Part shown: positions 23,230 to 42,331 of the stretch, in pieces
Position numbering within the stretch: the stretch's first letter is position 1
Layout: the number at the start of each line of letters is the position of its first letter
Assembly: GCA_012031965.1 (NCBI GenBank)
Contig: JAAUSC010000035.1
Location: 1-45,534 of the forward strand
Direction: 5' to 3'
DNA length: 45,534 nt
Source: Scytonema sp. RU_4_4
GTDB taxonomy: Bacteria; Cyanobacteriota; Cyanobacteriia; Cyanobacteriales; Nostocaceae
Made by a program: the position numbers and the translations under genes
The notes under the pieces: generated by a model
What the model was told of the DNA's origin: nothing
The model's database searches: none
Seen by the model: the letters and a program-made list of their open reading frames with translations, nothing else

Positions 23230-23566
23230 TAGAATTAGTAAAATGTACGGTCTTAGAAGTGCAGCTTAGTCAGCACCCCTGCCTAAAGGCTAGGGGCTTC
23301 TAGCCTCAAGCCGATAGGATTAGTTGACCAGACTCAGTACTTTGGGTACTACGTTAACGGTAAGTGTTTAAGTTCCTACCTTGGAATGCGTTCGCGCAGC
23401 GTGCCGTTAGGCATAGCTAGTTCCAGGCTCTAGAAATCAAGGATTAAACAGGTTTAGAGGGTTAAGCCAGTGTCTTTGATATAGTTACCGACCGTTAAAC
23501 ATTGTCAAAGCTAACTTTACTCCCGTAAGGGAAGGCTCTACGGAGCAAAACCGTTATGCGTACAGG

Positions 23567-39586: not shown

Positions 39587-39630
39587 GATCACTCAAGAGT
39601 TAGGAGTTGGGAGCTTGAAGTCGTGACACT

Positions 39631-39659
39631 CCTACACCTCTCTACCTTGTAGGTGTAGG
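39631..39659. repeat. Nine-base-stem hairpin after the helicase gene
   Basis: CCTACACCT pairs with AGGTGTAGG around an 11-base loop. It lacks a T tract and may be a dispersed repeat or part of an element end. Confidence 0.55.
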
Positions 39660-39729
39660 CTTCTGGCAGATTTTATCTTTCAGTGAACTTCGTTCGTGGT
39701 ACTCCAATTGTTTCCCACTACCACAATTT

Positions 39730-39839
39730 ATATAGCGGTTCTGGTGTTGAGTGCAATACATCAAAGAGTTAAGGAACCGCACCCTTCACGCTGATGCACG
39801 CTGATGAAAATGTACTTCATCCGAATGAGAACCGCTATA
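39730..39839. mobile_element. MITE-like element, copy B
   Basis: The 110-bp element has perfect 12-bp terminal inverted repeats TATAGCGGTTCT, no coding capacity, and an interior similar to copy A (10895-11028), including the words GGTGTTG near the left end and AATGAGAACCGCTATA at the right. Confidence 0.75.
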
Positions 39840-39897
39840 GTCAGGTACGTGTCCTGCCCGACTTGAATGATTGAAAACCATTCCCCTACGTTCCTTT

Positions 39898-39979
39898 GAG
39901 TGCAATACATTAAAGAATGAAAAAACCGCACCCTCGACGCAGATAAATTTGTACTTGATTCAAATGAGAAGCGCTATAT
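39898..39979. mobile_element. MITE-like element, partial copy C
   Basis: About 82 bases match the interior and right end of copy B (GAGTGCAATACAT, AACCGCACCCT, then CAAATGAGAAGCGCTATAT), but the left terminus is missing. It lies 59 bases after copy B in the same orientation. Confidence 0.65.
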
Positions 39980-40397
39980 TTATACAGGTCTCACCGTTTG
40001 TGTGGATTAATCGCTGCGTATCAGCAGCATGGGCAGGATGGATAGCTGCTAGCATAGACATTAGCGATACAAAAATAGAGGAGCTAGACAGTTAGTTAAG
40101 TATAAATTTTCTGTTCATGGGTTTCTTAAACAAATTTTACTGACCGCTAAGATAATCTAATTACTTATTACAGGTTTATAGAGTTTTTATCAGGAATACC
40201 AAGAATTGTTCATATTCTTTTTAGTTAATAAGTGTATAATTACACTATTTCAATCGTTTATAAAAGTTATACTAGTTTTTAGGTTCTACCTGGGAATTAC
40301 TTAGAAGTGGCTTTGCCACTTCTTTTTCTAATAGGTAATGTAAAGATAATCCTCTCAAAAATGAAGTCTGTCGCCGACACTCTAAAGGACACAGCTA

Positions 40398-40436: not shown

Positions 40437-40494
40437 TAGGAGAAATTTGCTCTTTGAGAGCCTGTGTAGACAAGCTTTGTATATGAGTCAACTA

Positions 40495-40711
40495 CCCACA
40501 CTGATCTGAGTACAGATACAGTGTGGGCTTGAAAGAACCAGCTTTCAACGCAAGAGATGACTAGCCCCACCAGACTTGTTTTGTTACAGACTTCCGAATG
40601 TTTCCTTAGTTCGGATTATCTCTAAGCCTACTGGTTGTAGGCGCTTGTAGAAAGGACATGCTAGACAAGTTGGGCTAAGGGACTTATTACTTTCTCGTAA
40701 GGATTGTCTCC
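40495..40711 (+). ncRNA. Putative omega RNA of the IsrB element
   Basis: The 217 bases directly before the isrB ATG are not coding and can fold into an ordered set of stems: CCCACACTG/CAGTGTGGG (40495-40527) with inner stem ATCTG/CAGAT; TTGAAAG/CTTTCAA (40529-40548); a long-range pairing TAGCCC with GGGCTA plus GACTTGT with ACAAGTT (40562-40579 with 40664-40677); and inside it TCCGAA/TTCGGA (40593-40615) and GCCTAC/GTAGGC (40626-40642). IscB/IsrB omega RNAs lie just upstream of the protein gene, carry the guide at their 5' end and have this kind of multi-stem scaffold. The guide would then be the roughly 16 bases before 40495. Exact ends are not known. Confidence 0.7.
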
Positions 40712-41809
40712 ATGCAACGAGTACCAGTGTTAGATAAAGACGGCAAGCCGCTTATGCCAACCAAACCCAGTCGGGCTAGACGTTGGCTTCAAGAAGGCAA
40801 AGCCAAGATTGTACGCAATGACCTGAATGTTTTTTGTATTCAGCTATTAGTAGAACCATCTGGATGTGGCACTCAACCAATAGCTTTGGGATTAGACCCA
40901 GGTAAAAGATTTACTGGTGTTGGTGTCCAATCTGCCAAGTTCACTTTGTTCATGGCACATCTAATTCTTCCTTTTTCTGATGTGACAAAAAAGATGTCAG
41001 GAAGGCTGATTTTGCGACGTGCCAGACGAGGTAGACGCATCAACCGTAAGGTTGCATTCAACAAAAGAGCGCATCATCAAAAACGGTTTGATAACCGTAA
41101 GCAGAACAAATTGCCACCTAGTATTCGGGCTAATAAAGAACTGGAATTACGAGTTACCAAAGAATTGGTAAAACTGTTTCCTGTTACTCAAATCACTTAT
41201 GAATATGTCAAAGCCAAAGGTGATAAAAGATTTAGCCCAGTGATGGTTGGTCAAAAAGTGATGTTGCAATGGTTGGAAAAGATTGCACCAACCAAAATCC
41301 AAGAAGGTTGGCAGACTTCAATACTCAGGCAGCAACTAGGTTTAGCTAAAGACAAAAAAGATAAATCTAGGCAAAGTCCTGAAACTCATGCTCATGATGG
41401 AGTGGCGTTGGCTGCAAGCAACTTCATGAAGTTTGAGAAATTTCAGACTGCAAATAGTCGTGGTCATCGCTGGAGAGGAGGAATCACAGTCACATCTGCG
41501 CCATTTCGAGTGATTGCTCGTCCTAATCTGTTTCGTCGCCAACTTCATTTTGAGAATCCTGTGAAAGATGCACCAGGTAATAGAAAACGTAAAGGTGGGA
41601 CAGTAACACCTTTTGGTTTTCGCTCTGGCGATTTAGTCAGGGCTGAAAAAGCGGGTAAGTCGTATTTTGGATGGGTTGGTGGATATACTCAAACACCCAA
41701 AACCAAGAATATTTCGGTCTATAACCACAATTGGCACAGGCTTGGACAGTTCAGCCCGTCAAAGGTGCAATTAATCAAACGGAGTACGAGATTATGCGTA
41801 GCATCCTAA
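40712..41809 (+). CDS. isrB: IsrB-like RNA-guided nuclease (IscB family without HNH)
   Basis: The 365-residue protein begins with the PLMP domain typical of the IscB superfamily (VPVLDKDGKPLMPTKPSRAR; the RRXRR domain in protein databases). RuvC-I is LGLDPGKRFTGVGV (Asp about 61), followed by an Arg-rich bridge-like helix (LRRARRGRRINRKVAF). RuvC-II is ITYEYVKAKG with the acidic Glu, and RuvC-III is ETHAHDGVALAAS. Between RuvC-II and RuvC-III there are only about 65 residues and no Cys/His-rich HNH, so it matches IsrB (about 350 residues, RNA-guided nickase) rather than IscB. The C-terminal part (GGTVTPFGFRSGDLVRAEK, YDHNW-like YNHNWHRLGQF) is the usual target-interaction region. No TnpA transposase lies nearby. 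The RuvC acidic residues look intact. Confidence 0.88.
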   Translation: MQRVPVLDKDGKPLMPTKPSRARRWLQEGKAKIVRNDLNVFCIQLLVEPSGCGTQPIALGLDPGKRFTGVGVQSAKFTLFMAHLILPFSDVTKKMSGRLILRRARRGRRINRKVAFNKRAHHQKRFDNRKQNKLPPSIRANKELELRVTKELVKLFPVTQITYEYVKAKGDKRFSPVMVGQKVMLQWLEKIAPTKIQEGWQTSILRQQLGLAKDKKDKSRQSPETHAHDGVALAASNFMKFEKFQTANSRGHRWRGGITVTSAPFRVIARPNLFRRQLHFENPVKDAPGNRKRKGGTVTPFGFRSGDLVRAEKAGKSYFGWVGGYTQTPKTKNISVYNHNWHRLGQFSPSKVQLIKRSTRLCVAS

Positions 41810-41814
41810 GAGAT

Positions 41815-41887
41815 AGTTTGATTTGTTGCTGCTCTCCTTCCTCTCCTTACTACGTGAGAAGCTGGTCGCAGAACGCAACAAATCAAA
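41815..41887. repeat. 14-bp inverted repeat just after isrB, possible element right end
   Basis: GTTTGATTTGTTGC (41815-41828) and GCAACAAATCAAAC (41874-41887) are perfect inverted copies around a 45-base loop that starts six bases after the isrB stop. It may be the transcript end or the hairpin-type right end of the mobile element. Confidence 0.65.
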
Positions 41888-41897
41888 CCCGCAATTC

Positions 41898-41944
41898 CTG
41901 AGCCAGTGCGTTGGGCGGGTTCCCCGACTTGTAGCATCTGGCGT
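41898..41944. repeat. Dispersed repeat, copy 3 (divergent)
   Basis: Shares the words GAGCCAGTGCG and TAGCATCTGGCGT with copies at 639 and 23567, but the central hairpin is altered (GGCGGGTTCCCCG). Confidence 0.5.
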
Positions 41945-42175
41945 CCCGACACCGAATCATAGATTACGGTGTGGGACTCCTTGCGGGACTAGGGCGTCGG
42001 TCAAGTACTCGTAATTGACGGAATGCGATGTTTGTGCATATCCAATTTTTTCTAGAATTGGGCGGATGACAAGCAAGTCCGTTAGGTGACTAAAACCACA
42101 AAAGCTCTAAAACAGATTGTGTCTGTATTGTCAACTATTATTTCTTGACCGGCGCTCTAGTTGATAATAACTTTG

Positions 42176-42331
42176 ATGTTTGCATTCTTACTGTTGTTTA
42201 TCACATCTCCCTTTGCTACTCTTGCAAGCCTGATGCTCCTGTTGTTAGGCACAGCTTTTTTCTTTTTGCTATGGAATATTTTCCAAGCAATTATTGGTAG
42301 CAGTGATATCGACTCTAATTCCTCAAATTGA
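42176..42331 (+). CDS. Possible 51-residue membrane protein
   Basis: ATG TTT GCA opens a 51-codon frame ending at TGA (42329-42331). It encodes a hydrophobic helix pair (about 3-10 and 16-33, LMLLLLGTAFFFLLWNIF) and a polar Ser/Asn/Asp tail. No clear ribosome site is seen (only TTG-rich sequence upstream). It lies ten bases from the convergent end of the hybrid kinase gene. Family unknown; it could be a chance hydrophobic frame. Confidence 0.4.
   Translation: MFAFLLLFITSPFATLASLMLLLLGTAFFFLLWNIFQAIIGSSDIDSNSSN

What the first reader, a model, noticed from the sequence alone, without database searches (positions are those of the whole stretch)
40495..41809. IsrB-type RNA-guided nuclease with its own structured upstream RNA
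Seen: a 365-residue ORF with the PLMP start, split RuvC with intact acidic residues, an Arg-rich helix, and no HNH insertion, directly preceded by 217 non-coding bases that fold into at least five well-paired stems. Known: IscB and IsrB are TnpB/Cas9-related RNA-guided DNA enzymes using omega RNAs encoded upstream; IsrB lacks HNH and nicks. Inference: this is an autonomous IsrB/omega RNA unit, or one domesticated after loss of its transposase, since no TnpA is adjacent.
Basis: partly seen in the sequence, partly recalled or inferred. Interest (0 to 1): 0.8.

Follow-up and report, generated by a model that had tools for sequence, protein, structure and literature searches.

The report
Cyanobacterial IsrB nickase with guide RNA
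This is an ordinary but intact copy of a known mobile gene (IsrB, a small relative of Cas9) together with the guide RNA it uses, in a filamentous cyanobacterium; the side observation worth following is that the same kind of guide RNA also occurs alone, often directly in front of host genes.

Summary
ORF 40712-41809 (365 aa) is an IsrB: the best solved relative by sequence and by fold is DtIsrB; RuvC D62/E164/H226/D229 are invariant in 30 aligned IsrBs, the window's included; no HNH. For a sister copy in the same genome, two of eight relatives show an empty site with insertion exactly between the guide-side flank and TTGA, the motif published for DtIsrB. No TnpA was found beside 43 IsrB loci, so its absence here is no sign of domestication. 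This copy's right flank was swapped by a rearrangement; it is probably immobile. New member of a known kind. By-product: of the 100 best of 146 IsrB-type omega RNA hits, 31 stand alone (two in this genome); 29 share an added 3' module, and 12 of 29 lie directly before an ORF of at least 100 aa.

The parts
40467..40486 (+). predicted guide segment (20 nt of left flank directly 5' of the omega RNA scaffold)
   Evidence: Inferred: the conserved left end begins at 40487 and the left flanks differ among the 26 copies whose flank was printed; 20-nt 5' guide in DtIsrB (PMC9581776, passages). Length and use not tested.
40487..40711 (+). omega RNA scaffold and leader to the start codon
   Evidence: HEARO RF02033 36.7 bits, E 2.1e-5 over 2401 bases, below the gathering score of 83; model R1 184.6 bits at 40487-40684 (the model contains this sequence); 56 of 56 family pairs; covariation.
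40712..41809 (+). IsrB protein, 365 aa (PLMP, RuvC-I, Arg-rich bridge helix, RuvC-II, RuvC-III, TAM-interacting domain; domain names by analogy with DtIsrB)
40895..40897 (+). RuvC-I Asp62 codon
   Evidence: invariant in 30 of 30
41201..41203 (+). RuvC-II Glu164 codon
   Evidence: invariant in 30 of 30
41387..41398 (+). RuvC-III His226 to Asp229 codons
   Evidence: His226 and Asp229 invariant in 30 of 30
41738..41749 (+). Arg343 and Gln346 codons, equivalents of the TAM-reading Arg323 and Gln326 of DtIsrB
   Evidence: alignment to 8dmb, my own numbering of the chain; role from PMC9581776 (passages)
41810..41992 (+). right end of the element (terminus GGACTCCTTGCGGGACTAG)
   Evidence: the same kind of terminus in other copies is followed by TTGA; here by GGCG
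41990..42160 (.). foreign right flank; in G002 the homologous place lies downstream of a ferredoxin-like ORF; junction at a shared TAG
   Evidence: homologous to loci of five same-genus genomes from 41989/41990 on

Best explanation
The stretch is a mobile element of the OMEGA class, IS200/IS605-like in its ends: an IsrB nickase with its omega RNA. Transcription from or through the left flank makes an RNA whose first ~20 nt (host sequence beside the element) are the guide and whose next ~200 nt fold into the scaffold; IsrB binds it and its RuvC domain nicks the non-target strand of DNA that matches the guide and is followed by (N)TGA, most likely TTGA. The natural target is the site without the element, so nicking favours retention or spread of the element to empty copies, moved by a TnpA supplied in trans. 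Shown here: protein family and intact active site, RNA structure by covariation, insertion between flank and TTGA for a sister copy. Taken from published IsrB work: nicking, 20-nt guide, motif reading. Inferred: RNA processing in this host, TnpA in trans, the retention role. This particular copy has lost its TTGA flank through a rearrangement and is probably stuck.
For: DtIsrB (8dmb) is the best PDB match, residues 2-360, E 3.7e-54; IscBs match the N-terminal part. AlphaFold model (pLDDT 83.8) matches 8dmb first, TM 0.76/0.84. RuvC residues invariant in 30. Omega RNA: HEARO end to end; over 27 sequences 44 of 56 pairs have changes on both sides and 88.0% of cells pair, against 33.6-46.4% when slid, adaptor and nexus pseudoknots included. 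64 of 197 genomes searched (own included) carry an IsrB at E 1e-60 or better. Empty site of the C320 copy: G006 and G003 read ...TTAGCACAGCA|TTGA, the occupied site ...TTAGCACAGCA|element|TTGA. Right ends followed by TTGA in 10 of 13 close copies by a motif search without a control. dN/dS 0.04-0.08 against nine homologues. One 88% relative lies on a Scytonema plasmid.
Against: No expression or activity data. The window copy has no NTGA at its right end, and G006, which shares its left flank, reads ATGA then GTAAAC at the corresponding place, so guide plus motif could not be shown for this copy. In the C320 empty-site test 2 of 8 relatives have TTGA at the site; four read TTAA, TTAG, TTAA or GTAA and two do not align to the last base. 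HEARO score is below the curated threshold. dS above 1 makes the ratios rough.
Confidence: 0.94

Rival explanations
1. A stranded and decaying remnant: still an IsrB locus, but cut off from its right flank by a rearrangement and no longer expressed or used. (Compatible with the family assignment above; a rival only as to function.)
For: Right terminus lacks TTGA and continues into DNA of another locus; the gene that follows the left-flank locus in G006 lies on contig C70 in the own genome with other neighbours.
Against: ORF and active site intact, 56 of 56 RNA pairs kept; nicking does not need the right end.
Confidence: 0.3
2. A domesticated IsrB kept for a host function, for instance guided gene regulation or defence.
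For: Probably immobilised position; strong family-wide purifying selection.
Against: The left-flank locus of six same-genus genomes and one same-family genome (G001-G006, G011) shows no homology to the element; selection at family level is equally explained by mobility; TnpA absence is the norm.
Confidence: 0.05
3. An IscB that lost its HNH domain recently.
For: NCBIfam's only hit is guided_IscB, over residues 6-167, below its cut-off (107.7 against 175).
Against: Full-length match to DtIsrB; 29 relatives of 50-88% identity align without an HNH-sized insertion; the genome's eight longer RRXRR ORFs, which I take for IscBs without having tested their HNH, match at 27-33% in the N-terminal half only.
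Confidence: 0.02

Closest known systems
DtIsrB (Desulfovirgula thermocuniculi IsrB, PDB 8dmb; PMC9581776, passages read)
   Same: fold, RuvC residues, TAM-reading Arg and Gln, no HNH, upstream omega RNA with adaptor and nexus pseudoknots, TTGA beside the insertion site of a sister copy
   Different: 36% identity in the fold alignment; scaffold of about 200-225 nt against 262 nt; host is a cyanobacterium
DsIsrB and CwIsrB (Dolichospermum, Crocosphaera; PMC9581776, passages read)
   Same: cyanobacterial IsrBs with group B2 omega RNAs and an NTG TAM by assay
   Different: their sequences were not compared here
HEARO RNA, Rfam RF02033 (IscB-type omega RNA)
   Same: same overall architecture, end-to-end alignment
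   Different: 36.7 bits, below the 83-bit threshold; has the adaptor pseudoknot that PMC9581776 describes as kept in IsrB and degenerated in IscB RNAs

Membership tests
IsrB (OMEGA nickase) | PLMP domain and split RuvC with intact catalytic residues | tested here: met
IsrB (OMEGA nickase) | about 350 aa and no HNH domain | tested here: met
   365 aa; no HNH match in Pfam or NCBIfam; 62 residues from Glu164 to His226
IsrB (OMEGA nickase) | structured omega RNA directly upstream with two pseudoknots | tested here: met
IsrB (OMEGA nickase) | NTGA/TTGA target-adjacent motif 3' of the guide-side flank | tested here: inconclusive
   met for the sister copy C320 in two relatives and at 10 of 13 right ends; not met at the window copy, whose right flank is rearranged
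IsrB (OMEGA nickase) | RNA-guided nicking of the non-target strand | not testable with these tools
   needs biochemistry
IscB | HNH domain inserted in RuvC | tested here: not met
HEARO RF02033 | score at or above the gathering threshold of 83 bits | tested here: not met
   36.7 bits
Autonomous IS200/IS605 element | own TnpA (Y1) transposase | tested here: not met
   no match to the genome's four TnpAs in the window or in 43 IsrB loci; the four lie elsewhere

The most novel reading that the evidence does not exclude
IsrB in these cyanobacteria works in trans with a dispersed family of stand-alone IsrB-type omega RNAs. These are short mobile units (scaffold, an added 3' hairpin, right end) that lack the nuclease gene, insert 5' of ATGA and so often come to lie directly before start codons (leuB-, miaB- and prfB-like ORFs by my reading of their starts); their guides are the leader sequences of those genes. 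A resident IsrB would nick empty alleles on the many chromosome copies and drive the units to fixation, or bind and influence the host gene. Two such RNAs are in this genome (C67, C2).
Probability: 0.4. Interest if true: 0.6.

Novelty: new member of a known kind. Interest (0 to 1): 0.33.

Why it matters
The gene itself adds one more IsrB to a family already solved and assayed, cyanobacterial members included. It matters as an anchor: a sister copy gives natural empty sites that place flank and TTGA at single-base resolution without an assay, and its omega RNA model finds stand-alone IsrB-type guide RNAs; of the two in this genome Rfam's HEARO model lists one, at 53.5 bits against a threshold of 83, and not the other. 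If those RNAs work in trans, a guided nickase with scattered guide genes would be a natural multi-guide system in cyanobacteria.

Tried and rejected
Empty site of the window copy itself: the left flank was found in six same-genus genomes, but the right flank comes from another locus, so no clean empty site exists; I used the C320 copy instead. Self-target search with the last 15 nt of the guide plus NTGA, up to two mismatches, in the own genome: the element's own flank (one mismatch, no NTGA) and two sites with two mismatches, which I do not take for targets; reversed-pattern control none. The stand-alone pair L207/L208 is too similar (left flank 99.5%, RNA 98.9%, right end 98.7%) to test constraint on the RNA; the fall to 70.8% further downstream was not explained. 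RNAalifold on the plain alignment gave a poor consensus because of insertions; I named the structure from one relative (L050) instead, so control (b) leans to it; in control (a) the count of further pair types was the weakest measure (98 against 88.8, 1 of 500 shuffles as high). The adaptor-pseudoknot columns pair in 56.5% of cells in stand-alone RNAs against 75.3% in linked ones; by eye the pairing is kept in a shifted register, which I did not score. Stand-alone count: I took the 100 best of the 146 hits (108.6 bits or more; 46 weaker ones were not examined). 43 of the 100 had no IsrB within 700 nt; of these 8 have IsrB fragments, 2 end at contig edges and 2 have an IsrB more than 2 kb on, leaving 31; two of these (L168, L170) lack the 3' module and L170 keeps the first codons of an IsrB by eye. 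The start-codon control (492 ATGA sites) counts sites inside genes and the right-end sites themselves, which makes it conservative.

Literature: in the listings (searches show 15 of 58 and 10 of 47 papers) I saw no title or abstract start about stand-alone IsrB omega RNAs; the omega sign cannot be searched. PMC9581776 (passages) mentions stand-alone omega RNAs that work with IscB. PMC10097598 was looked into (passages) and not used. Altae-Tran 2021 and Weinberg 2009, where such RNAs and HEARO come from, are recalled only.

Full report
Observation. The ORF at 40712-41809 is there, 365 codons from an ATG. It carries Pfam RRXRR at 162.6 bits. Against PDB sequences the best match is DtIsrB (8dmb), residues 2-360, E 3.7e-54; IscB structures match the N-terminal part. 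An AlphaFold model from 30 aligned IsrBs (pLDDT 83.8, pTM 0.82) finds 8dmb first in the PDB (E 2.7e-31, TM 0.76 by query, 0.84 by target). No HNH family was matched. In the alignment of 30 sequences, the window's included, D62, E164, H226 and D229 are invariant. Arg323 and Gln326 of DtIsrB, which read the target-adjacent motif (PMC9581776, passages), correspond to Arg343 and Gln346 here by the alignment and my own numbering.

The RNA. A permissive Rfam scan gives HEARO at 40487-40690, 36.7 bits, E 2.1e-5 for 2401 bases, model positions 1-211 of 211, below the gathering score of 83. I aligned 27 upstream regions from IsrB loci; of 31 loci prepared, L003, L055, L061 and L071 were left out because the left end was unclear, divergent or replaced. 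A named structure of 56 pairs with two pseudoknots gives 88.0% paired cells (shuffled 70.5), 44 pairs with changes on both sides (shuffled 31.2) and covariation 0.515 (shuffled 0.196, none of 500 as high); sliding the partners drops pairing to 33.6-46.4%. The window RNA makes 56 of 56 pairs, 11 of 11 in the pseudoknots. Two such pseudoknots, adaptor and nexus, are described for IsrB (PMC9581776, passages).

Mobility and target motif. The own genome (7.33 Mb, 400 contigs) has two more IsrBs, C320 (87% identical) and C277 (49%). The BLAST alignment of the window copy with C320 runs from 40525 to 41809, the stop codon; the left end GTCAACTACCC at 40487 is shared by eye. The left flanks differ in the 26 copies whose flank was printed. 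The C320 copy sits at the 3' end of a gene that looks like a FAD-dependent hydroxylase (by eye). Of eight relatives examined, six align up to the insertion point, G005 to within 2 nt and G023 to within 11 nt; G006 and G003 continue with TTGA, G004 and G002 with TTAA, G001 with TTAG, G011 with GTAA. The occupied site has TTGA after the right end. So the element went in between its left flank and TTGA, the motif DtIsrB prefers at 60 C (PMC9581776). A motif search, without a control, found a right end followed by TTGA in 10 of 13 close copies; the misses are the window copy, L053 and L052, and by eye L052 does end in TTGA.

This copy. Its right end reads to ACTAG and then GGCG, not TTGA. From 41989/41990 the DNA is homologous to a place that lies elsewhere in five same-genus genomes; in G002 it is downstream of a ferredoxin-like ORF (by eye). 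The gene that follows the left-flank locus in G006 is on contig C70 in the own genome. I read this as a rearrangement at a shared TAG after insertion; an assembly error cannot be excluded. In G006 the corresponding empty place reads ATGA then GTAAAC, so the target motif of this copy is not shown.

Transposase. The genome's four TnpA proteins have no match (tblastn, E 0.01) in the window or in 43 IsrB loci with flanks of up to 1.5-2.5 kb, shorter at contig ends (several loci are one place held under two ids; other TnpA types could be missed). Lack of TnpA is thus the rule here, not a sign of domestication.

Host. G003 and G006, classed as same genus, have contigs of the same lengths as records of Brasilonema bromeliae SPC951 and Brasilonema sp. 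UFV-L1 that carry the same matches, so the window is probably from Brasilonema (inference). An IsrB at E 1e-60 or better occurs in 64 of 197 genomes, own included, and one 88% relative lies on a Scytonema plasmid. Pairwise dN/dS to nine homologues is 0.04-0.08 with dS above 1.

Stand-alone RNAs. A covariance model from 20 of the 27 RNAs finds five places in the own genome: three with IsrB, and C67 and C2 without. Over 119 genomes, own included, it gives 146 hits at E 1e-6 or better. I examined the 100 best (108.6 bits or more): 57 have an IsrB within 700 nt by the list, 43 do not. All 43 were fetched: 8 show IsrB fragments, 2 end at contig edges, 2 have an IsrB more than 2 kb on; 31 remain. 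29 of these share a 3' part that I do not see in the 27 IsrB-linked RNAs (by eye): GCTGGTT..GGATTATATCC..AACCAGC, interrupted by an insertion in L171, with modest covariation (9 cells changed on both sides, shuffled 2.2; 4 pairs). In the 31, core helices pair as in linked RNAs (98.8% and 98.9% for S3/4 and SL4, linked 98.1%), the adaptor pseudoknot less so by columns (56.5 against 75.3%). All 29 have an ATGA near the right end by a pattern that asks for ATGA; 12 of 29 open a frame of at least 100 aa against 11.4% of 492 ATGA sites in the same loci (binomial 4e-5; 12 of 28 if one of the twin loci L207/L208 is dropped). By reading the starts, L188 looks like leuB, L206 like miaB and L209 (25 codons, not among the 12) like prfB with its frameshift; these names are recalled, not searched. 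Placement before start codons may reflect both the ATGA target and tolerance. Whether IsrB uses these RNAs is unknown; G120 and G030 carry them and are not among the 64 genomes with an IsrB at 1e-60.

Verdict. Interest lies mainly in the by-product.

Noticed in passing
window 23269-23520 (+): A strong IscB-type HEARO omega RNA (131.5 bits) with no RRXRR ORF near it. The own genome has 22 HEARO hits; by coordinates 7 lie beside one of its 8 longer RRXRR ORFs, one (C67) is IsrB-type, 14 have none, a few of them at contig ends.
   Followed up: partly
L173 (own genome C67:20840-21028) and L193 (C2:19440-19629): Stand-alone IsrB-type omega RNAs with a right end 104 and 132 nt on and no nuclease gene; the C2 one lies upstream of an ORF that looks like IF-3 (by eye).
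   Followed up: yes
L191 and L055 (G158:C31:15411-19075): The omega RNA and its IsrB are 2.4 kb apart; the stretch just before the IsrB looks like the end of a group II intron with an HNH-type ORF (by eye).
   Followed up: no
window 39623-39981: The left flank carries pieces repeated elsewhere in the genome (C91, C219, C303, C310), 85-95% alike.
   Followed up: no
window 41990-42325: The right flank is a mosaic: 41990-42160 and 42161-42325 match two different loci of relatives; 42110-42160 recurs with 51 of 51 identities on own contig C205.
   Followed up: partly
L012 (own genome C378:14841-15290): A 274-codon frame matching only IsrB residues 173-345 at 35%; not identified.
   Followed up: no
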